NCBI RefSeq assembly: GCF_029868385.1
Contig: NZ_JARWNX010000027.1
Span: 40,679-104,678 of the forward strand
Direction of reading: 5' to 3'
Origin: Nocardia cyriacigeorgica
GTDB lineage: Bacteria > Actinomycetota > Actinomycetes > Mycobacteriales > Mycobacteriaceae
Length of the DNA: 64,000 nt
Of this stretch, positions 1 through 12,073 are shown piece by piece (the first letter of the stretch is position 1; each line of letters opens with the position of its first letter). The position numbers and the translations under genes are program-made. The notes beneath the pieces were generated by a model that searched no databases, was not told the origin of the DNA, and worked only from the letters and a program-made list of their open reading frames with translations.

Positions 1-677
1 CCAATGCGATGACGGTCTATCAGGCGAAACGGCTCGGGATAAAGAACTTCTCGCTGCTGGTCTCGCATGTGCTGGTACCGCCGGCGATTTCGGCGATCAT
101 GGAATCGCCGAGCTGCCGGGTGCAGGGCTTCCTGGCCGCCGGGCATGTGTGCACGGTGATGGGGACCGGTGAATACCCGCCGCTGGCGGAGAAATACCAC
201 GTGCCGGTGGTCGTCACCGGATTCGAACCGCTCGACATTCTCGAAGGCATCCGGCGCACCGTGCTCCAGCTCGAACAGGGCCGTCATGAATTGGACAATG
301 CCTACCGGCGCGCGGTGTCCGCCGACGGCAATCCCGCCGCCAAGGACATGCTCGCCGACGTCTTCGAACTCACCGATCGGGCCTGGCGCGGAATCGGAGT
401 GATTCCGGGCAGCGGGTGGCGACTCTCGCCCCGCTATCGCGAATACGATGCCGAGCATCGGTTCTCGGTGCAGAATCTGCACACCTCGGAGTCCTCGGTC
501 TGCCGCTCCGGTGAGGTATTGCAGGGCCTGATCAAACCGCACGAATGCGCCGCGTTCGGCAAACAGTGCACGCCACGAAATCCGCTGGGCGCCACCATGG
601 TGTCGTCGGAGGGCGCGTGCGCGGCGTACTACCTGTACCGGCGGCTCGATCTCCCCGCGGAGGTGGCTCATGCCTGA
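1..677 (+). CDS. hypD: Hydrogenase maturation protein HypD, C-terminal part
   Basis: This is the carboxy-terminal part of HypD, the cytoplasmic iron-sulfur scaffold that works with HypC and HypE to build the Fe(CN)2CO centre of [NiFe]-hydrogenases. The frame is open from the first bases, so the 5' part (roughly 150 codons, as the family is usually about 370-380 aa) lies outside the window; the ATG at 9 is internal. Family features seen are the [13 protein letters not shown] segment and the cysteine-rich end with '[13 protein letters not shown]', '[12 protein letters not shown]' and a final Cys near '[13 protein letters not shown]'. The last 8 bases overlap hypE, which implies translational coupling in one hyp operon. 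The hydrogenase structural genes are not in the window. Confidence 0.93.
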
Positions 678-1749
678 ATCCACCGAGACCACGGCGGCGG
701 GCATCGACTTCGAGAACTGGGTCTGCCCGATGCCGCTGCGCGATTCGCCGAATATCGTCATGGGGCACGGCGGTGGCGGTGCGATGTCGGGCGAGTTGAT
801 CGAGCATCTGTTCCTGCCCGCGTTCGGCGCCGCGGCCGCACCGGGGCTCGGCGATTCGGCCGTGCTCACCCTCGCCGGTGCGCGCTTGGCCTTCACCACC
901 GATTCGTTCGTGGTGAAACCGATGACCTTCCCCGGCGGTTCGATCGGGGAGCTGGCGGTCAACGGGACGGTCAACGATCTGGCGATGTCCGGTGCGCGGC
1001 CCATGGTGCTGTCGACGGCGTTCATCCTGGAAGAAGGCACACCATTGGCGTCGATCGCGGCGATCGCCGGAGCCATGGGCACGGCGGCGCTCGGCGCGGA
1101 CGTGAAACTGGTGACCGGTGACACCAAGGTGGTCGACGCCGGGCACGGCGACGGTGTCTATGTGAACACCGCGGGTATCGGTGTCCTGGACGCCGGGGTG
1201 GATATCCGGCCGGAACTTGCGCGGGCCGGTGATGTGGTGCTGGTCAGCGGTGAGATCGGTGTGCATGGTGTCGCGGTGCTGTCCTGCCGCGCCGGACTCG
1301 AGTTCGGGACCACGGTGTGCAGCGATACCGCGCCGCTGCACGGTCTGGTCGCCGCCATGCTCGCCACCGGCGCGCAGGTGCATGTCCTGCGCGACCCGAC
1401 CCGTGGCGGCGTGGCCGCGAGTCTGAACGAGATCGCCAGATCCGCGCAGGTCGGGGTGGTACTGGACGAGCGGAAGATCCCGATCCCGGCGGGCGTGCGT
1501 GATGCCTGCGGGCTGCTCGGCCTCGACCCGCTCTACGTCGCGAATGAAGGCAAACTGGTGGCCTTCGTCGCCGCCGAGGACGCGGATCGGGTGCTGGAGG
1601 CGATGCGCGCGCATCCGCTCGGGGTGCACGCCGAGGCCATCGGGCACTGTGTGACCGATCATCCGGGAATGGTGGTGGCCCGTACCGCACTGGGCGGTAC
1701 CCGCGTAGTGGACCTGCCTGCCGGAGAACAACTTCCGCGGATCTGCTGA
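670..1749 (+). CDS. hypE: Hydrogenase maturation protein HypE
   Basis: HypE (359 aa) dehydrates a carbamoyl group delivered by HypF to a thiocyanate on its own C-terminal cysteine and passes cyanide to iron on the HypC-HypD complex. The protein ends in the diagnostic Pro-Arg-Ile-Cys. The N-terminal half has the AIR-synthase-like ATP-binding features of the PurM superfamily: '[13 protein letters not shown]' near residues 35-47, '[16 protein letters not shown]' near 75-90 and '[13 protein letters not shown]' near 97-109; 'DPTRGGVA' lies near 242. The ATG at 670 lies inside the end of hypD (8-base overlap). Length and motifs are those of an intact enzyme. Confidence 0.95.
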
Positions 1750-1757
1750 GCCTCGCG

Positions 1758-2531
1758 GTGACGGAGCCGAGGATGGTGGACGCGTACCGGGCGCCGGGCG
1801 GTGGCGTCGGCATGTTCGCGCGATACGCGTACGCGCCCAATGCCCTCGGCTACTGCGGGCCACCCGAGCCCGGTCGTCTGCGTGACGGATCGCCCGCCGA
1901 GGTGCGGGCCGCGGCGGTCCGCTTCACCGGGGCCTGGCCGTATCTGCGGGTGCTGTCACGGATGACCGGCATCGCCGATCCGCTCGACGCTCGATTGGTC
2001 GAATCGTATTGGCTCGGCGGCGGAATCGGCGCGACGCTGGATCGCACGGCCTTCGCGGCCGAGCTCATGGCCGTGATCGAACCGCTGGCCGGGCACTATT
2101 GGAACCATCTGACCGATGACCTCGCCGAGGAAGCCGCGCCCGACCACTGCTTCCACGTCTTCGGCATCTATCCGTGGACGCGATTGCTCCGGGTCGGGAC
2201 CGGCGCCACCGCCGTGCGGGTGCTCGACAGCTGCCGGATCACCTGCGGTCTGATCGTCGCGCGCGAGGGGCCCGAGATCGTGGTGCGCAGCCGCGGACTC
2301 GGCTGGGACGGCCACCGGCTGCGGCTGGCGGAGCCGACCGAGCGCCGGATCGCGGTGACCATCGACGGCTATTCGGCCGTGCCCGATGTCCGGCCGGGCG
2401 AGGTCGTCTCACTGCATTGGGATCGCTTGTGCGCGCGGTTGACCCCGCGTCAGGCCGCCGACCTGAGCGCGAGCACGGCCCGGCAGCTGGACTGGACGAA
2501 CCGCCGCCTGTCGCGCGAGCAGGCCGAGTGA
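1758..2531 (+). CDS. Conserved hypothetical protein linked to hyp genes (DUF6390-like)
   Basis: A 257 aa soluble protein of unknown function, 8 bases after hypE in the same direction and so probably the last gene of the maturation operon. Its N-terminal stretch 'FARYAYAPNALGYCGPPEP' resembles a short actinobacterial family that I recall as DUF6390, found next to hydrogenase genes; this assignment is from memory. A Cys-Gly-Pro near residue 34 and His residues near 'DHCFHVFG' (about 128) could bind a metal, but no known enzyme motif is visible. The start used is GTG at 1758; an in-frame ATG at 1773 would remove five residues. A role in [NiFe] cofactor or hydrogenase assembly is inferred from position only. 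Confidence 0.75.
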   Translation: MTEPRMVDAYRAPGGGVGMFARYAYAPNALGYCGPPEPGRLRDGSPAEVRAAAVRFTGAWPYLRVLSRMTGIADPLDARLVESYWLGGGIGATLDRTAFAAELMAVIEPLAGHYWNHLTDDLAEEAAPDHCFHVFGIYPWTRLLRVGTGATAVRVLDSCRITCGLIVAREGPEIVVRSRGLGWDGHRLRLAEPTERRIAVTIDGYSAVPDVRPGEVVSLHWDRLCARLTPRQAADLSASTARQLDWTNRRLSREQAE

Positions 2532-5113: not shown

Positions 5114-6460
5114 TCAGGCGCCGGTCGATATCCCGCCCGACGGCGGCAACTGCGGTAGCGGCGCGTTCAGCAGCCAGCTGTCCCACAGTGGGCGTAACGG
5201 CACCATGCTGTAGTGCCCGGCCAGATCGGTGAACTCCTCGGTGGTCACCGATGCGTGCCGGTAGCGCACCGTCCACTCCCGCAGCAGCCGGAAGAACGCC
5301 GAATCACCGAGTTCGAGCCGCAACGAATGCAGGCACAGCGCGCCGCGCTTGTAGACCCGGTCGTCGAACATGTTCGTCGGTCCGGGATCGCCGACGATGA
5401 TGTCCTGCGGTTGACGCGCCAGATTGTGCCGGGCCGCCCTCGCCAGCTGATCGGCGGTCGGCCCGCCGGATTCCTCGGACCAGATCCACTCCGCGTAACA
5501 GGCGAAACCCTCGTGCAACCAGATATCGCGCCACTGCCGGATGGTCAGGCTGTTGCCGAACCACTGGTGCGCGAGTTCATGGGCGACCAGACGTTCCGCG
5601 CCGCGGCGGCCATCGCAATGGTTGGCGCCGAAGATCGAGATGCCCTGGGCCTCGATCGGTATCTCCAGCTCGTCATCGGTGACGACCACCGTGTACGCCT
5701 CGAACGGGTACGGCCCGAACTTCTCGGTGAACACCTCGAGCATCCGTGGCTGTCTGGCGAAATCGTGGTCGAAGGCGCCACGCAGCCGCGCGGGCACCAG
5801 TGCGTACATGGGCAGCGAGCGCTGCGGACCGATGCGATGTCGGCGGTACTGGCCGATCTGAATGGTCGCCAGATAGCTCGACATCGGTTCGGACTGCTCG
5901 TACACCCAGGTGGTCTGGCTCGCCTTGGTCTGTTTGCGCAGCAGGGTGCCATTGGCCAGCGCGTGGTAGGGCGTATCGGTGGTGATCGAAATGCGGTAGC
6001 TGGCCTTGGAACTCGGATGGTCGTCGCACGGGAACCAGGAGGCGGCGCCGTTGGGCTGGCTGGCGACGAGGGCGCCGTCGGTGAGTTCTTCCCAGCCGAC
6101 CTCACCCCACGGACCGCGGACCGGCCGCGGTGTCCCGGCATACTGCACGGTCACCGAGAGCAGCCCACCCGCCGGAATCCGCTGCTGCGGTGTGATGACG
6201 AGCTTGCCCTGCTGATGGCTGTACTTGGCTACCTTGCCGCCGTTGACCAACACCTTCGACACCGATAACGCCTGCGACAGATCGAAGGCGAAACGCGGCC
6301 GCACCTCGGTGGCGACCGCGGTGATCTCGGCGCGGCCCGCCAGCCGGTTGGCGGCGACCTTGTAGATCAGCTCTAGTTCGTACCGTGAGACCCGATAGCC
6401 CCGGTTGCCGTTCTGCGGCAGGTACTCGTCGATGGGAGCGTCGTAGAACTTGGCTCCCAT
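5114..6460 (-). CDS. M1-family zinc metallopeptidase, coupled to the Pls-type synthetase
   Basis: A 448 aa M1 (gluzincin) aminopeptidase-like enzyme. The zinc motif is HELAHQWFGN, with the third ligand Glu in 'HEGFACYAE' 18 residues on; a distal Tyr is in 'DRVYKRGALC'. The exopeptidase loop GxMEN is replaced by 'IPIEAQGISIFG', so substrate recognition may differ from general aminopeptidases. It is shorter than typical M1 enzymes (about 850 aa) because it lacks the large C-terminal domain. No signal peptide is seen. The start chosen is ATG at 6460, which shares one base with the TGA stop of the upstream synthetase (TGATG) and so implies translational coupling. The pair recalls epsilon-polylysine synthetase and its zinc-dependent degrading enzyme in Streptomyces; turnover or self-protection is inferred. 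Confidence 0.9.
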   Translation of the reverse strand: MGAKFYDAPIDEYLPQNGNRGYRVSRYELELIYKVAANRLAGRAEITAVATEVRPRFAFDLSQALSVSKVLVNGGKVAKYSHQQGKLVITPQQRIPAGGLLSVTVQYAGTPRPVRGPWGEVGWEELTDGALVASQPNGAASWFPCDDHPSSKASYRISITTDTPYHALANGTLLRKQTKASQTTWVYEQSEPMSSYLATIQIGQYRRHRIGPQRSLPMYALVPARLRGAFDHDFARQPRMLEVFTEKFGPYPFEAYTVVVTDDELEIPIEAQGISIFGANHCDGRRGAERLVAHELAHQWFGNSLTIRQWRDIWLHEGFACYAEWIWSEESGGPTADQLARAARHNLARQPQDIIVGDPGPTNMFDDRVYKRGALCLHSLRLELGDSAFFRLLREWTVRYRHASVTTEEFTDLAGHYSMVPLRPLWDSWLLNAPLPQLPPSGGISTGA

Positions 6461-9400
6461 CAGCGGGCGGCTCCCGGGTCGGTGGCGGTGGCCCACGGCG
6501 CGATCGGATTACCCCACCAGCGCGTCGACGGCGGGACGGTATCGCCACGCATCACCAGCGAAGCCGGTCCGATGGTCGCGCCCGCGCCGATGGTGGCGGC
6601 GGGCAGGGCGACGCAGTGCGGGCCGAGCGTGGCACCCGCGCCGAGGGTGACGGTATCCATGGACATGATCCGATCGTGGAACAGATGGGTCTGCACCACG
6701 CAGCCACGTTCCACGGTCGCGCCGTCACCGAGCGTCACCAAATCCGCCTCCGGTAGCCAATAGGACTCGCACCATACCCCGCGACCGATACGGGCGCCGA
6801 GGCCGCGCAGCCACAGATTCAGTACCGGGGTACCCGTCGCGGCGCGCGCGAACCACGGCGCGGCGACGGTCTCGACGAAGCTGTCGGAGACCTCGTTGCG
6901 CCAGACGAACGAACTCCACAGCGGATGCTCCTCCGCGCCGATCCGGCCGATCAGCAACCATTTCGCGGTCACCGCGCTCGCGCAGGCCACCGCGCCAGCG
7001 ACCATGAGCACCACACCGGACAGCAGCGCCGCGCCCGGATAGCCGATGGCCTGCGCCAACCAGGCGAGGGCGAACAGCACGCCGAGCCCGATCGCGAATG
7101 TCACCAGCACCGGCAGCAGGCGGCAGGTCTCCACCACGGCCCGGAACACCCGCAACCGCAGCGGTGGATCGAAAGTGCGCTCGGTATCGGTGGTTTCGGT
7201 GGCGCGCCGCAGCCGCACCGGCGGACTGCCGAGCCAGGACGAACCGGCCTTGGCCTTGCTCGGTGCGGCCGACAGCACCGCGACAAGGCCGTTCTTCGGC
7301 ACCCGTCGGCCGGGCGCGGTCATCCCGGAGTTGCCGAGGAACGCGCGTTTGCCGACCTTCGCCTCGCCGATGCGCAGCCAGCCGCCGCCGAGTTCATATC
7401 CGGCGATCATGGTGTCGTCGGCCAGGAACGCGCCGTCGGCGACGGTGGTGAACTTCGGCAGCAGCAACACCGTCGATGCCTCGACCCGTTTGCCGATCCT
7501 GGCGCCGAGCAGCCGCAACCAGATCGGTGTGAGCAGGCTGGCGTACAGCGGGAACAGGAAGTTGCGCGCGCCGTCGAGCAGGCGTTCGGTAGCCCACACC
7601 TGCCAGCCGACCCGGCTGCGGACCGGGTGATAACCCTCGGTGAGACCGATGCTGAGCATGCGCACCGCGATCACCGTCGCCACCGCGTAGACCAGCAGGC
7701 TCAGGAGGGTGGCCACGGGCAGGACGAGCAGTCCGCGGCCGAGCGCGCCCGCGATGGTGGTGGTGTCGCGGATCGACCAGACGATGAGCGCGCCACCGGC
7801 GGCCAGCCCGAAGATCGGCATCGCGGCCAACCCCATCGAGCTGAGCGCGAACGCCGCCACCCAGTGCACCGCACGCTTCGGGGTGTCGGCGGGCCAGCGG
7901 TGCCTGGCCTTGCCGACCTTCACCGCGGGTGAACCCGCCCACTCCTGATCCGGTTTGACCTTCCCGGCGACCGCCGAACCCGCCGCGATCTCGGCGCCGC
8001 GGCCGATCTTGGTGCCGGGCAGCAGGATCGAGCGCGCACCGACCACCGCCCCGCGACCGATCACGATCGGCCCGATATGGACGACATCGCCATCGATCCA
8101 ATATCCGGACAGATCCACCTCGGGTTCGACACTGCACCCGTCGCCGAGTTCGAGCATGCCGGTCACCGGCGGCAGGGTGTGCAGGTCGACGCCCTTGCCG
8201 ATCTTCGCGCCGAGCGCCCGCGCGAACGGCACCATCCACGGTGCACCGGAGAGGTTCTCCGCGCCGCTGGCCTCCGACAGCCGCACCGCCGCCCACAACC
8301 GCAGATGCACCGAACCGCCGCGCGGATAGCTGCCGGGTTCCACACCGCGCAGCAGCAGCCTGGCGCCGACGATACAGATGCTCATCCGCCCGAGCGGGGT
8401 GATGAACACGATGAACAACAGCAGCGTCCACCACCACGACAGCTGCGGCAGCCAGGGCAGCGCACCCGCCCGGCTCGCGATATTGCCGACGATGGCGAGC
8501 CAGGTCAGCCATTGCAGACCGGTGAGGGTGGTCAGCGGGATGGTGGCGAGCACCTGTGCGCACTGCGCCGACAGCGGGGTCGGCCGGACGGTGCGCTCGA
8601 CGACGGCGGCCGCCGGTGCGGTGTCGTCCAGCAGTTCGGCGAGCGCGCCGAGCCGGGGATGGTCGTACAGATCGGCGACAGCGATCCGCGGATACCGTTC
8701 GCGCAGCGCCGTCACCAACTGGGCGGCCGACAGTGATCCGCCGCCGAGATCGAAGAAATCGGCATCGGCGCCGGTGATTTCGGCGCCGAGGATCGAGGTC
8801 CACAGCTGCGCCACCCAGGCCGCGGTGCCGGTGAGCCCGTGATCGACGTTCTGATCGGTGCCCGCCACCGGCCAGGGCAGGGCGTCGCGATCGACCTTGC
8901 CCGAGGTGCGGGTGGGCAGTTCGGGAACCACGACCAGGCGCGGAACCAGCGGTGCGGGCAGCTGTTCGGCGAGCAGCGCGCGGGCGGCCTTGACGTCGTA
9001 ATCGGGCGGGGTGCCGGTGAGGTAGCCCACCAGGATCTGCGTTCCGGCCCCGGTGGTGCGCACGGCGGCCGCCGCACCGCTCACACCGGGCAGATGTTGC
9101 AGGGCGTTGTCGAGTTCGCCCAGTTCGATCCGGCGGCCACCCACCTTGACCTGATCGTCGGCGCGGCCGATGAAGACCAGCCCGGCACTGTCGTTACGCA
9201 CCAGATCGCCACTGCGGTAGGCCCGTTGCCAGCCGAGCGAGGGCAGCGGCGCGTACTTCTCGGCGTCCTTGGCCGGGTCGAGGTAGCGGGCCAGGCCGAC
9301 GCCACCGATCACCAGCTCACCGGATTCGCCCTCACCGACCGGATTACCGGCCGGGTCGACAACCGCCAGATCCCAGCCGTCGAGCGGCAATCCGATGCGC

Positions 9401-10389
9401 ACCGGCCAATTCCCGTCCAGCAGTGCCGCGCACGCGACGACCGTGGCCTCGGTGGGACCGTAGGTATTCCACACCTCGCGCTCGGCATCCGGATCGCCCG
9501 CCAGACGTTCGGCCAGCTCCGGAGGCACCGCCTCACCACCGAAGATGAGCAGCCGCACCGGTTCGAGCGCCTCGGCGGGCCAGGTCGCGGCCAGTGTCGG
9601 CACCGTCGATACGACGCTGATCTCATGGCGCACCAGCCACGGGCCGAGATCGGCGCCGGTGCGCACCAGCGCGCGGGGCGCCGGAACCAGGCAACCGCCG
9701 TGCCGCCAGGCCAGCCACATCTCCTCACAGGAGGCGTCGAAGGCCACCGACAGTCCGGCCAGCACGCGGTCGCCGGGGCCGATCGGAGCGTCCCGCAGGA
9801 ACATGCGTGCCTCGGCGTCGACCAGCGCGGCGGCATTGCGATGGGTCACCGCAACACCTTTCGGGGTGCCGGTGGAGCCGGAGGTGAAAATGATCCAGGC
9901 GTCGTCGGCAGGGGTCGGCGATGCCGGACCATCGGATTGCTCATCGGATGCTGAGGTGCGCTGTGCGTACTCGGTCGGCTCGATACCCGAAGCCGTCACG
10001 ATCGCGGTGACCTTCGCCTCACCGAACACCAAGCGCGCCCGTTCGTCCGGGTCGTCGGCGTCGACCGGAACATAGGCCGCACCCGCGTGCAGCACCGCCA
10101 GAATCGTGACGTACAGCTCACGGGTGCCCGACGGCATCCGCACCCCGACCCGGTCGCCGCGGCGCACACCGGCCGCGCCGAGACGCTGGACCGCGACCTC
10201 GATCTCGGCCAGCAGTTCGGTATAGGTGAGTGCGGTGTGGCCGTCGTCGATGGCCGGTGCGTCCGGGTGGGCGCGCGCGGTCTCGGCGAGGATATCGGTG
10301 AGCGTTCGCGCAGGTGGGGCGAGGTTCGAGCGGCGCAGTGGATCGAGCTCCCGGACCGAACCATCGGTATCGATCTGCGGCTGGAGCAT
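6460..10389 (-). CDS. Pls/PosA-family single-module NRPS (amino acid homopolymer synthetase-like)
   Basis: A 1309 aa membrane NRPS with the layout of Streptomyces epsilon-polylysine synthetase. Order: adenylation domain about residues 30-505 (A3 'TSGSTGTPKG' near 169-178, A5 'NTYGPTE' 308-314, A7 'YRSGDLV' 391-397, A10 'SGKVDR'), carrier domain with 'LGGGSLS' and attachment Ser552, then six membrane segments in three pairs alternating with three tandem C-domains resembling left-handed beta-helix acyltransferases (hexapeptide runs such as 'IGRGAVVGARSILLPGTKIG'). There is no thioesterase and no HHxxxDG condensation domain. Specificity positions aligned by eye read D218 A219 E222 S261 I282 G284 T309 V317 V318 K498, close to the lysine code. 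The start is ATG at 10389 behind GAGGAAGG; the frame is open 48 codons further. The product is inferred. Confidence 0.93.
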   Translation of the reverse strand: MLQPQIDTDGSVRELDPLRRSNLAPPARTLTDILAETARAHPDAPAIDDGHTALTYTELLAEIEVAVQRLGAAGVRRGDRVGVRMPSGTRELYVTILAVLHAGAAYVPVDADDPDERARLVFGEAKVTAIVTASGIEPTEYAQRTSASDEQSDGPASPTPADDAWIIFTSGSTGTPKGVAVTHRNAAALVDAEARMFLRDAPIGPGDRVLAGLSVAFDASCEEMWLAWRHGGCLVPAPRALVRTGADLGPWLVRHEISVVSTVPTLAATWPAEALEPVRLLIFGGEAVPPELAERLAGDPDAEREVWNTYGPTEATVVACAALLDGNWPVRIGLPLDGWDLAVVDPAGNPVGEGESGELVIGGVGLARYLDPAKDAEKYAPLPSLGWQRAYRSGDLVRNDSAGLVFIGRADDQVKVGGRRIELGELDNALQHLPGVSGAAAAVRTTGAGTQILVGYLTGTPPDYDVKAARALLAEQLPAPLVPRLVVVPELPTRTSGKVDRDALPWPVAGTDQNVDHGLTGTAAWVAQLWTSILGAEITGADADFFDLGGGSLSAAQLVTALRERYPRIAVADLYDHPRLGALAELLDDTAPAAAVVERTVRPTPLSAQCAQVLATIPLTTLTGLQWLTWLAIVGNIASRAGALPWLPQLSWWWTLLLFIVFITPLGRMSICIVGARLLLRGVEPGSYPRGGSVHLRLWAAVRLSEASGAENLSGAPWMVPFARALGAKIGKGVDLHTLPPVTGMLELGDGCSVEPEVDLSGYWIDGDVVHIGPIVIGRGAVVGARSILLPGTKIGRGAEIAAGSAVAGKVKPDQEWAGSPAVKVGKARHRWPADTPKRAVHWVAAFALSSMGLAAMPIFGLAAGGALIVWSIRDTTTIAGALGRGLLVLPVATLLSLLVYAVATVIAVRMLSIGLTEGYHPVRSRVGWQVWATERLLDGARNFLFPLYASLLTPIWLRLLGARIGKRVEASTVLLLPKFTTVADGAFLADDTMIAGYELGGGWLRIGEAKVGKRAFLGNSGMTAPGRRVPKNGLVAVLSAAPSKAKAGSSWLGSPPVRLRRATETTDTERTFDPPLRLRVFRAVVETCRLLPVLVTFAIGLGVLFALAWLAQAIGYPGAALLSGVVLMVAGAVACASAVTAKWLLIGRIGAEEHPLWSSFVWRNEVSDSFVETVAAPWFARAATGTPVLNLWLRGLGARIGRGVWCESYWLPEADLVTLGDGATVERGCVVQTHLFHDRIMSMDTVTLGAGATLGPHCVALPAATIGAGATIGPASLVMRGDTVPPSTRWWGNPIAPWATATDPGAAR

Positions 10390-10593
10390 CACGTCCGGCC
10401 CACCTTCCTCAGCACTGTCCGGCAGTAACCATGTTCGGCGGTACGGCCTCACCCAACTAATTCTCGAAGACGGTTGTTTCATACGAGGGTTACCAATGGG
10501 CAAACGGCGAATGCCCTGGTGACCAGTTGTCAACGGTACCCGCAGCGGTAACCGGGTTGACAGCAGCGTGGCCGGTCTGTCAGCCTCTGATCA
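10390..10593. other. Intergenic region between the Pls-type gene and the SAM-IV riboswitch
   Basis: A divergent promoter region. TTGACA occurs on the plus strand at 10557-10562 (pointing to the riboswitch) and on the minus strand at 10528-10533 (pointing to the synthetase gene). No good -10 element at standard spacing was found for either, and no gene is seen. Confidence 0.4.
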
Positions 10594-10709
10594 GGTCATG
10601 AGTGCCAGCGTCAAGCCCCGGCTAGCTGGTCGGCAACCCTCCTCCGCGGTGGGGTGCTCCGGGTGACGACCGGGCCGCAGCCCGACCGGGCGCGGCAAGC
10701 GCGGACTCG
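10594..10709 (+). promoter_or_regulatory. SAM-IV riboswitch
   Basis: The run from GGTCATGAGTGCCAGCG through CGTCAAGCCCCGGCT, CGGCAACCCTCC, GCGGTGGGGTGC and CCGGGTGACGACC to GCGGCAAGCGCGGACTC matches the actinobacterial SAM-IV aptamer almost base for base, as recalled from the mycobacterial example of known structure. Its 3' end overlaps a further hairpin: GGACTCG (10703-10709) pairs with CGAGTCC (10726-10732). That hairpin ends 21 nt before the start codon of the next gene, so ligand-dependent control of translation or elongation is likely. SAM binding would switch off the downstream sulfur-related gene. Confidence 0.9.
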
Positions 10710-10753
10710 ACGATTCCCCTTTTCGCGAGTCCCTCAGTCGATGGGATGACGTG

Positions 10754-12073
10754 ATGACTGCTGTGTTCGATCAGACCTGTGCCGCTCTCGCCCGGGTCTC
10801 CGGCGACGACCTCCAGGTCCCGCTGGTACAGGGCGGGACCTGCACGTACGCCAATCTCGACTACGCCGCGAGCGCACCGGCGCTCGCGCAGGTCACCGAC
10901 CGGGTGCAGCGCCTGCTGCCCTACTACGCCAGCGTGCACCGCGGCGCCGGATACGCCTCCCGGATCTCCACCGAATGCTATGAGGCGGCCCGTGGTTCGG
11001 TGGCCCGCTTCCTCGACGCGACCGACGACCAGGTGGTGGTCTTCACCCGCAACACCACCGATTCGCTGAACCTGCTCGCCGCCTGCGTTCCCGGCGACAC
11101 CGTGGTGCTCGATGTCGAACATCACGCCAATTTCCTGGCCTGGGAACAGCGCGGCAGGCGTGTGGTGCGGGCGGCCGACACGATCGAGGAGACCGTGCGG
11201 CGCGTCGTCGCCGAACTCTGCGCGAAACCCGCTGCGCTGCTTGCGGTCACCGGCGCCTCCAATGTGACCGGCGAGGTGCTGCCGTTGGCGCGGTTGGCCG
11301 AGATCGCCCATCAGTGCGGCGCCCGCATCCTCGTCGACGCCGCACAACTCGCGCCGCATCGTCGAATCAGCCTGCGCGAATGCGGTATCGACTACCTGGC
11401 CTTGTCCGGACACAAGCTGTACGCGCCGTTCGGCGCCGGTGTGCTCGTCGGCAATCGGGACTGGCTGGACGCGGCGCCGCCGTATCTGGCCGGAGGCGGT
11501 GCGGTGCGCGCGGTGCGGGTCGATGGCGTCGACTGGGCGCCCGCGCCCCAGCGGCACGAGGCCGGATCGCCGAATGTGCTCGGCGTCGCGGCATTGGCGG
11601 CGGCCTGCGAGGCGCTGGCCGAGATCGATGCGGAGCGGGCGATCGCGCATGAGCGGCTGTTGGCAGACCGGCTGCGGGACGGTCTGTGCGCCATTCCCGG
11701 CGTCCGATTGCTGCGTATCTGGTCCGACAGCCCCGATACCGTCGGCATCGTGGCCTTCACGCTGGACGGATTCGCGCCGGGTGAAGTCGCGGCGTACCTG
11801 TCCGCCGAACACGGCATCGGCGTACGTGACGGCCGGTTCTGCGCGCATCCGCTGCTGAACCGGCTCGGCGTCGACGGTGCGCTGCGGGCGAGCATCGGGT
11901 TGGGTACCAGTTCCACGGAGGTGGATCGGCTGATCGCCGCGGTCGCCACTCTGGTGCACGACGGCCCGTCATGGAACTACACGTGCACCGACGGCCTCTG
12001 GAATCCGAGCCCGGAAACCAGGCCGTTCACCGGCGTCGATGGTGTGGGCGCGGCTCCCTGCCTCATCGGCTGA
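10754..12073 (+). CDS. Class V aminotransferase / cysteine desulfurase-like PLP enzyme
   Basis: A 439 aa PLP-dependent fold-type I enzyme of the SufS/CsdA branch. Seen: 'YLDYAASAP'-like substrate region ('NLDYAASAPA'), 'TRNTTDSLNLLA' phosphate-binding region near 95, 'DVEHHANFLAW', 'DAAQLAPH' with the PLP-pairing Asp near 195, and 'SGHKLYAPFGAGVLVG' with the Schiff-base Lys near 221. A Cys in 'GRFCAHPLL' (near 362) sits where the persulfide Cys of SufS is found. No suf genes are adjacent. Control by the upstream SAM-IV riboswitch argues for a role in cysteine/methionine sulfur flow rather than general transamination. ATG at 10754 is used; GTG at 10751 is one codon earlier. Confidence 0.88.
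   Translation: MTAVFDQTCAALARVSGDDLQVPLVQGGTCTYANLDYAASAPALAQVTDRVQRLLPYYASVHRGAGYASRISTECYEAARGSVARFLDATDDQVVVFTRNTTDSLNLLAACVPGDTVVLDVEHHANFLAWEQRGRRVVRAADTIEETVRRVVAELCAKPAALLAVTGASNVTGEVLPLARLAEIAHQCGARILVDAAQLAPHRRISLRECGIDYLALSGHKLYAPFGAGVLVGNRDWLDAAPPYLAGGGAVRAVRVDGVDWAPAPQRHEAGSPNVLGVAALAAACEALAEIDAERAIAHERLLADRLRDGLCAIPGVRLLRIWSDSPDTVGIVAFTLDGFAPGEVAAYLSAEHGIGVRDGRFCAHPLLNRLGVDGALRASIGLGTSSTEVDRLIAAVATLVHDGPSWNYTCTDGLWNPSPETRPFTGVDGVGAAPCLIG

What the first reader, a model, noticed from the sequence alone, without database searches (positions are those of the whole stretch)
5114..10389. Pls-type homopolymer synthetase with lysine-like code, translationally coupled to an M1 peptidase
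Seen: one A-T module, six membrane segments in pairs, three left-handed-beta-helix C-type domains and no thioesterase, the layout of epsilon-polylysine synthetase. Ten specificity positions, aligned to GrsA by eye, read D-A-E-S-I-G-T-V-V-K; spacing between the first three groups (43 and 21 residues) equals GrsA. The recalled lysine code of bacitracin synthetase is D-A-E-S-I-G-S-V-C-K (8 of 10 equal). The next gene shares a base with its stop (TGATG) and encodes a short M1 zinc peptidase, recalling the synthetase-degrading enzyme pairs of Streptomyces. Inference: this organism makes a lysine (or close diamino acid) homopolymer or short isopeptide and turns it over. No such product is well known to me from Nocardia.
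Basis: partly seen in the sequence, partly recalled or inferred. Interest (0 to 1): 0.82.

Follow-up and report, generated by a model that had tools for sequence, protein, structure and literature searches.

The report
Polylysine make-and-break gene pair
A Nocardia chromosome carries two overlapping genes, one for a membrane enzyme of the kind that strings lysines into the antimicrobial epsilon-polylysine and one for a zinc peptidase predicted to cut that polymer, and in 151 related genomes an intact pair is kept or lost together, so making and breaking polylysine is likely part of ordinary life in this bacterial family rather than a rare antibiotic trait.

Summary
On the minus strand lie a 1309-aa synthetase (10389-6460) and a 448-aa M1 peptidase (6460-5114) sharing one base (TGATG). 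The synthetase is a Pls/PosA-family member; its code DAESIGTVVK equals that of the solved S. albulus polylysine synthetase at all ten positions. Prior print: Pls homologs in Nocardia (2014, 2025), pls-pldII coupling in S. albulus, and a Corynebacterium variabile homolog that made epsilon-polylysine in S. coelicolor. New here is the rule around the pair. Of 151 genomes of the family, 137 have both genes, 13 neither, none the synthetase alone, one the peptidase alone. That lone peptidase has lost all six catalytic residues; the 136 partnered ones read keep them. An rpoB tree needs at least seven losses; the active peptidase goes in all seven, also in a genus whose carriers hold the genes apart. 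The code is identical in 136 of 136 readable orthologs; 11 of 11 Phe-coded paralogs have no such peptidase nearby. PepN is in 151 of 151. In a phylum sample both genes mark the same 12 of 246 genomes. Not shown: that Nocardia makes the polymer or that this peptidase cuts it.

The parts
6460..10389 (-). Pls-family synthetase gene, 1309 aa plus stop
   Evidence: TIGR02353 759.5 bits; best PDB relative 7wew_A, epsilon-poly-L-lysine synthase, E 7.4e-185
8869..10332 (-). A domain (residues about 20-507), code DAESIGTVVK
   Evidence: Pfam AMP-binding 220.4 bits; code positions; identical to 7wew at the ten aligned positions
8629..8817 (-). T (carrier) domain, residues 525-587, with the GGGS motif at S552
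   Evidence: Pfam PP-binding 50.2 bits; S552 at least 99% conserved over 136 orthologs
6502..8559 (-). C-terminal membrane region with three beta-helical soluble blocks (residues 611-1296)
   Evidence: TIGR02353 2-695 of 695; model; fold matches to hexapeptide acyltransferases; QTHLF.DR with H1235 invariant in 51 aligned sequences including four paralogs
6460..6460 (-). shared base of the synthetase stop and the peptidase start (TGATG)
   Evidence: sequence; TGATG at the junction in at least 50 of 78 Nocardia-type loci (top rows only)
5114..6460 (-). two-domain M1 zinc peptidase gene (PldII-type), 448 aa plus stop
   Evidence: Pfam Peptidase_M1 95.2 bits; model pLDDT 94.4, best PDB match the Deinococcus two-domain M1 6koz, TM 0.86, 28% identity
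5510..5581 (-). codons of the zinc site HELAH-18-E (residues 294-317)
   Evidence: all six catalytic positions kept in 136 of 137 aligned orthologs
10473..10505 (-). upstream element GTTTGCC-N4-GGTAACCC...TATGA.ACAAC, probably part of the promoter
   Evidence: columns conserved in an alignment of 75 Nocardia-type upstream regions; GGTNACC 1.41 per 239 nt against 0.09 in Markov shuffles and 0.24 in random windows; not seen as such in other genera; function inferred

Best explanation
The two overlapping genes encode a membrane-bound Pls-family synthetase and a two-domain M1 zinc peptidase that are predicted to make and to break epsilon-poly-L-lysine in the same cell. Inferred steps: the A domain adenylates L-lysine and loads it on the T domain; the three beta-helical blocks between the membrane helices join the carboxyl group of one lysine to the side-chain amine of the next and pass the chain to or through the membrane; the peptidase, made at once by translational coupling, trims or destroys polymer that stays with the cell. 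Shown here: the family membership, the lysine-type pocket, the complete zinc peptidase site, purifying selection on both genes, and the rule that the synthetase never occurs without an active peptidase in the genomes read. I read the pair as a near-core, vertically kept function of this bacterial family in which the peptidase is the obligate safeguard or recycler.
For: Code identical to S. albulus Pls and in 136 of 136 readable orthologs of 27 genera, 75 of 75 readable Nocardia-type loci and 7 of 7 Pls genes of other families, each with the peptidase directly downstream. Synthetase in 137 of 151 family genomes, peptidase in 138 of 151: both 137, neither 13, peptidase alone 1, synthetase alone 0. 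PepN control 151 of 151. The lone peptidase, in G026, is altered at all six catalytic positions; the other 136 of 137 aligned keep them. rpoB tree of 57 genomes: at least 7 losses; active peptidase goes the same way in 7 of 7 independent pairs, sign test p 0.0156. In genus g3 all 9 carriers have the genes apart, yet G087 of that genus lacks both. Phylum sample: synthetase over cut-off in 12 of 246 genomes, peptidase at 400 bits or more in the same 12, next best 317.9 bits. 11 of 11 Phe-coded paralogs have no such peptidase in 11-15 kb. dN/dS 0.08-0.17 for pls and 0.11-0.15 for the peptidase, five comparisons each. In print: C. variabile homolog makes epsilon-polylysine in S. coelicolor (PMC8117764); repression of pldII lowers tolerance and lyses cells in S. 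albulus (PMC9223678, passages).
Against: No product or enzyme activity is shown for any Nocardia. C. variabile itself made no detectable polymer, its Pls protein was not among 1,647 detected proteins, and C. glutamicum expressing it made none (PMC8117764). A review says inactivating Pld and PldII in S. albulus changed neither yield nor chain length (PMC8506220, passages). PldII is described as lying outside the membrane (PMC9223678), but this peptidase has no hydrophobic or export segment (highest 19-residue hydropathy 0.9), so where it meets its substrate is open. In linked genomes one deletion can remove both genes at once. The peptidase of one synthetase-bearing genome (G104) was not read.
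Confidence: 0.8

Rival explanations
1. The pair is a conventional, mostly silent antibiotic locus: epsilon-polylysine is exported against competitors and the peptidase protects the producer, as proposed for S. albulus.
For: Known activity of the polymer and the self-protection proposal (PMC8117764; PMC9223678); no polymer detected in C. variabile under the conditions tried.
Against: 137 of 151 genomes over a whole family carry it with an invariant code and no other conserved neighbour: apart from the peptidase no gene cluster was found in more than 40 of 137 loci. Antibiotic loci are usually patchy (recalled).
Confidence: 0.35
2. The synthetase makes something other than plain polylysine: a short lysine oligomer, or lysine joined to a lipid or wall component.
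For: The C-terminal blocks resemble acyltransferases that use many acceptors; no Nocardia product is known to me.
Against: Same code and layout as Pls enzymes whose product is known, including the C. variabile homolog.
Confidence: 0.12
3. The peptidase is a general aminopeptidase that travels with the synthetase only because the genes are neighbours.
For: 124 of 137 family loci have it downstream on the same strand within the fetched window, so single deletions can remove both.
Against: All 9 carriers of g3 and 4 of 9 of g9 have the genes apart and still keep both, and a g3 genome lacks both; the only orphan is catalytically altered; Phe-coded paralogs lack it.
Confidence: 0.07
4. The locus is a decaying remnant without function.
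For: Silence of the C. variabile locus in culture.
Against: dN/dS 0.08-0.17 and 0.11-0.15; open frames and invariant catalytic residues over the family.
Confidence: 0.03

Closest known systems
Pls, epsilon-poly-L-lysine synthetase of Streptomyces albulus (A domain PDB 7wew)
   Same: A-T-membrane layout, ten of ten code residues, downstream M1-type peptidase gene in an overlapping pair (PMC4361855)
   Different: One shared base (TGATG) here against a 4-nt overlap there; Nocardia-type upstream element; near-core in its family instead of a trait of producers; product not shown here
Pls of Corynebacterium variabile (PMC8117764)
   Same: Actinobacterial homolog with a peptidase gene next to it; product shown to be epsilon-polylysine in S. 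coelicolor
   Different: That report covers cheese and skin isolates; it does not give the family-wide pairing, the joint losses or the altered orphan peptidase in the sections I read (3, 5, 6)
Pls homolog nfa3790 and polylysine-type clusters of Nocardia (PMC4035055, PMC12153302)
   Same: The same gene by description: printed as common to seven Nocardia strains and as a cluster class in 218 of 263 genomes (passages)
   Different: No peptidase partner or code is discussed in the passages I saw
PosA, delta-poly-L-ornithine synthetase of Acinetobacter baumannii (PMC10522769)
   Same: Same family (TIGR02353 name Pls/PosA)
   Different: Met at code position 2 and a single-gene operon; here Ala and a coupled peptidase
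Two-domain M1 metallopeptidase of Deinococcus radiodurans (6a8z, 6koz)
   Same: Compact two-domain M1 fold, TM 0.86
   Different: 28% identity; not linked to a synthetase as far as I know (recalled)

Membership tests
Pls/PosA cationic homopolymer synthetases (TIGR02353) | A domain, T domain and a TIGR02353 terminal region in one protein | tested here: met
Pls/PosA cationic homopolymer synthetases (TIGR02353) | no canonical condensation or thioesterase domain | tested here: met
   no such Pfam hit at E<=1e-3
Pls/PosA cationic homopolymer synthetases (TIGR02353) | six membrane helices in three pairs with three soluble domains | tested here: inconclusive
   two clear pairs; third modelled as one long helix over two hydropathy windows; three soluble blocks supported
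epsilon-polylysine (Pls) subfamily | Ala at code position 2 and the code of the known Pls | tested here: met
   ten of ten equal to 7wew; Ala for lysine enzymes, Met for PosA, Phe for PDAP/PDAB per PMC10522769
epsilon-polylysine (Pls) subfamily | makes epsilon-poly-L-lysine from L-lysine and ATP | not testable with these tools
   shown in print for the S. albulus and C. variabile enzymes, not for Nocardia
delta-poly-ornithine synthetase (PosA) | Met at code position 2 | tested here: not met
   A219
poly-diaminopropionate/diaminobutyrate synthetases | Phe at code position 2 | tested here: not met
   A219; Phe is found in the 11 paralogs
PldII-type epsilon-polylysine-degrading M1 peptidase | M1 fold with the full catalytic set | tested here: met
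PldII-type epsilon-polylysine-degrading M1 peptidase | gene coupled to a lysine-type pls | tested here: met
PldII-type epsilon-polylysine-degrading M1 peptidase | hydrolyses epsilon-polylysine | not testable with these tools
   needs an assay
PldII-type epsilon-polylysine-degrading M1 peptidase | sits outside the membrane, as described for S. albulus | tested here: inconclusive
   no export or membrane segment by hydropathy; no signal-peptide program was run

The most novel reading that the evidence does not exclude
Epsilon-polylysine is an endogenous polymer of ordinary physiology in this whole family, made and destroyed by an obligate two-enzyme cycle that was inherited from its ancestor: the synthetase is tolerated only where the peptidase works, and the peptidase keeps its catalytic site only where the synthetase exists.
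Probability: 0.4. Interest if true: 0.75.

Novelty: new member of a known kind. Interest (0 to 1): 0.5.

Why it matters
Polylysine is studied as a food-preservative antibiotic of a few Streptomyces. Here the same synthetase, with an unchanged lysine pocket and a peptidase that is never missing, is near-core in a family with Nocardia (and, by the control genome, a hit in Corynebacterium glutamicum). If the polymer is made, it is a little-studied polycation in many soil, skin and clinical bacteria. The orphan peptidase that lost its active site and the empty class 'synthetase without peptidase' turn the question of what the peptidase is for into a simple genetic test: loss of the peptidase should hurt only when the synthetase is present.

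Tried and rejected
Fusion as evidence: G037 shows synthetase and peptidase in one 1748-aa frame. Rejected: against G007 of the same genus the frame changes through an extra C in a C run right after the conserved GNP, so a recent one-base change or a sequencing error explains it, and G007 has separate overlapping genes.

First rpoB tree: wrong, 14 of 57 rows had been read in a wrong frame. Replaced; only one search is used. In it the 'active peptidase' state was set to present for all 43 synthetase-bearing rows; for G104 that was not read. G014 gave no rpoB match and is not in the tree.

Shared regulator over the family: the GGTNACC element is marked only in Nocardia (10 of 10 in 400 nt); elsewhere at most 5 of 8 (g19) and 4 of 9 (g11) against a control rate of 0.285, with the hits shown lying near the start codon; genera with one or two genomes say nothing. 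A likeness to known actinobacterial response-regulator boxes was recalled and not tested. Lysine riboswitch: none found at 10300-11200; the only strong hit is SAM-IV for the divergent gene.

Coupling over the family: an in-frame start within 4 nt of the synthetase stop exists in 69 of 122 loci examined, within 60 nt in 32 more, neither in 21; this counts any start codon, so chance ones too. Left out there: 13 loci without the peptidase in the window, the contig-edge locus of G014 and the fused G037.

Absences: fold comparison lists name other families only where listed; the first soluble block was not searched alone. Paper searches: of which 23 and 82 gave nothing of use; I saw no report of the joint losses or of the altered orphan in them, but only open-licence papers are held and the 2010 paper on PldII is not.

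Peptidase count in the phylum sample: the 400-bit line was drawn after seeing the gap (419.8 to 317.9 bits); inside the family the lowest ortholog has 361.7 bits and the next match 210.1.
Full report
What is there. Both genes lie on the minus strand. The synthetase runs from 10389 to 6460 (1309 aa), the peptidase from 6460 to 5114 (448 aa), and stop and start share base 6460 in TGATG. NCBIfam places the C-terminal region in TIGR02353, Pls/PosA family, at 759.5 bits against a cut-off of 423.1; Pfam gives AMP-binding, PP-binding and Hexapep and no condensation or thioesterase domain at E<=1e-3. The closest solved structure is the A domain of epsilon-poly-L-lysine synthase, 7wew, E 7.4e-185. The genome is a Nocardia: the best 80 loci by peptidase are 79 Nocardia titles and one Antrihabitans, the nearest N. 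cyriacigeorgica at 91%.

Substrate. The ten code positions read DAESIGTVVK, and in the alignment with 7wew every one carries the same residue. The PosA paper gives Ala at position 2 for lysine enzymes, Met for ornithine and Phe for diaminopropionate/diaminobutyrate enzymes (PMC10522769; passages, sections 9 and 10). A Corynebacterium variabile homolog made epsilon-polylysine of 26-35 residues when expressed in S. coelicolor, while C. variabile itself and C. glutamicum carrying it made none (PMC8117764, sections 3, 5, 6).

Distribution. TIGR02353 is over its cut-off in 137 of 151 genomes of the family, against 7 of 239 genomes outside it in the phylum sample (12 of 246 in all, five of them in the family). 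In the named control set, only C. glutamicum is over the cut-off. All 136 primary orthologs with a readable A domain, of 27 genera and with the window counted, have the same code; the 137th (G014) is cut by a contig end. Among 80 Nocardia-type loci 78 show the synthetase, 75 of them with all code positions readable and identical. Eleven paralogs in ten genomes read DFEYLGTVTK. Both genes are under strong purifying selection against five Nocardia loci: dN/dS 0.079-0.172 and 0.109-0.146.

The pairing rule. The peptidase (E<=1e-20) is in 138 of 151 genomes: 137 with both genes, 13 with neither, one (G026) with the peptidase alone, none with the synthetase alone. The general aminopeptidase PepN is in 151 of 151, so incomplete assemblies do not explain the gaps. 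In 124 of 137 loci the peptidase lies downstream on the same strand within the fetched window; the other 13 are all nine carriers of genus g3 and four of g9, where it lies elsewhere in the genome. No third gene is comparably conserved: the next cluster is found in 40 of 137 loci. G087, of g3, lacks both although its nine relatives hold the genes apart, so two separate losses are needed there. On an rpoB tree of 57 genomes, chosen by me to hold all 14 without the synthetase and 43 with it, well-supported branches force at least seven changes and the best tree eight. Over seven independent pairs the peptidase goes the same way in six (p 0.0312) and the active peptidase in seven (p 0.0156).

The orphan. 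Of 137 peptidases aligned (G104 was not fetched), 136 keep E270, H294, E295, H298, E317 and Y370; the exception is the one in G026, the only genome with the peptidase and without the synthetase. It is altered at all six positions in an otherwise open frame, and no synthetase remnant was found by tblastn in the 12 kb around it. G026 is the only genome held of its genus, so this is one event, not a trend.

Specificity of the pairing. In the phylum sample the seven synthetases outside the family all read DAESIGTVVK and have the peptidase directly downstream at 46-54% identity, and the peptidase at 400 bits or more is in the same 12 genomes as the synthetase, the next match having 317.9 bits. By contrast 0 of 11 Phe-coded paralog loci have such a peptidase within 11-15 kb, nor do the six other, partial or divergent TIGR02353 loci of that sample, whose held stretches are short.

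Structure. The model of residues 600-1309 (mean pLDDT 84.9, pTM 0.87) shows three beta-helical blocks separated by long helices. The second and third blocks match hexapeptide-repeat acyltransferases; the first has the Pfam Hexapep hit. Two helix pairs are clear; the third appears as one long helix, so the six-in-three-pairs layout, taken from print for Pls, is not fully shown here. H1235 in QTHLF.DR is the only invariant histidine over 51 aligned sequences including four paralogs; acyltransferases of this fold use a catalytic histidine (recalled), so the third block is my candidate for the joining site. The peptidase model (mean pLDDT 94.4) is the two-domain M1 fold.

How it most likely works. 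Lysine is adenylated, loaded on the carrier and polymerised by the membrane region (inferred from the family). The peptidase, coupled in translation, destroys or trims polymer that stays with the cell (inferred). The empty class 'synthetase without peptidase' and the altered orphan point both ways: the synthetase needs the peptidase, and the peptidase has no use without the synthetase. In print the evidence on pldII is mixed: one study reports lysis, lower tolerance and longer chains on repression (PMC9223678, passages), while a review states that inactivation changed neither yield nor chain length (PMC8506220, passages). Print puts PldII outside the membrane; this peptidase shows no export segment, which leaves its site of action open.

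Regulation. Across 75 Nocardia-type upstream regions a block GTTTGCC-N4-GGTAACCC...TATGA.ACAAC is conserved (window 10473-10505), with GGTNACC at 1.41 per 239 nt against 0.09 expected from Markov shuffles and 0.24 in random windows of the same loci. It is not marked in other genera. It is probably a promoter with an operator; the regulator is unknown.

What is new and what is not. The synthetase and its coupling to a degrading peptidase are known kinds, and Pls homologs in Nocardia are in print (PMC4035055; PMC12153302; passages only). I did not see the family-wide joint retention and loss, the altered orphan or the lysine-only specificity of the pairing in the passages and sections read or in seven searches, which cover open-licence papers only.

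Noticed in passing
window 10594-10707 (+) and 10751-12073 (+): A SAM-IV riboswitch (107.6 bits) stands before a divergent class-V aminotransferase gene that shares the intergenic region with the synthetase.
   Followed up: partly
window 9-2531 (+): HypD (end of the gene), a HypE-like AIRS protein and a DUF6390 protein in a row: a hydrogenase-maturation cluster at the left edge.
   Followed up: no
L151-L161: Eleven second Pls-family genes in ten genomes, code DFEYLGTVTK (Phe at position 2). Neighbours scanned in three of these loci (L155, L159, L161) include BPL_N proteins (L155, L159) and HGSNAT-type membrane acyltransferases (all three), and none of the eleven has the M1 partner; perhaps a modified diaminopropionate or diaminobutyrate polymer.
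   Followed up: partly
L147:4245-5564 (-): The peptidase of G026 is an open-frame pseudoenzyme altered at all six catalytic positions, in the only genome that has it without the synthetase.
   Followed up: partly
L105:4978-10224 (-): Apparent synthetase-peptidase fusion of 1748 aa in G037, traced to an extra C after the conserved GNP; true frameshift or sequencing error cannot be told apart.
   Followed up: yes
L283, L284: TIGR02353 proteins in which no A domain precedes the T and membrane parts; an A-domain match starting DIW lies in a separate stretch downstream. A split kind of this family without the peptidase.
   Followed up: no
whole genome G000: 114 AMP-binding matches, many in very long frames, in a 6.2-Mb draft: a genome rich in peptide synthetases.
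   Followed up: no
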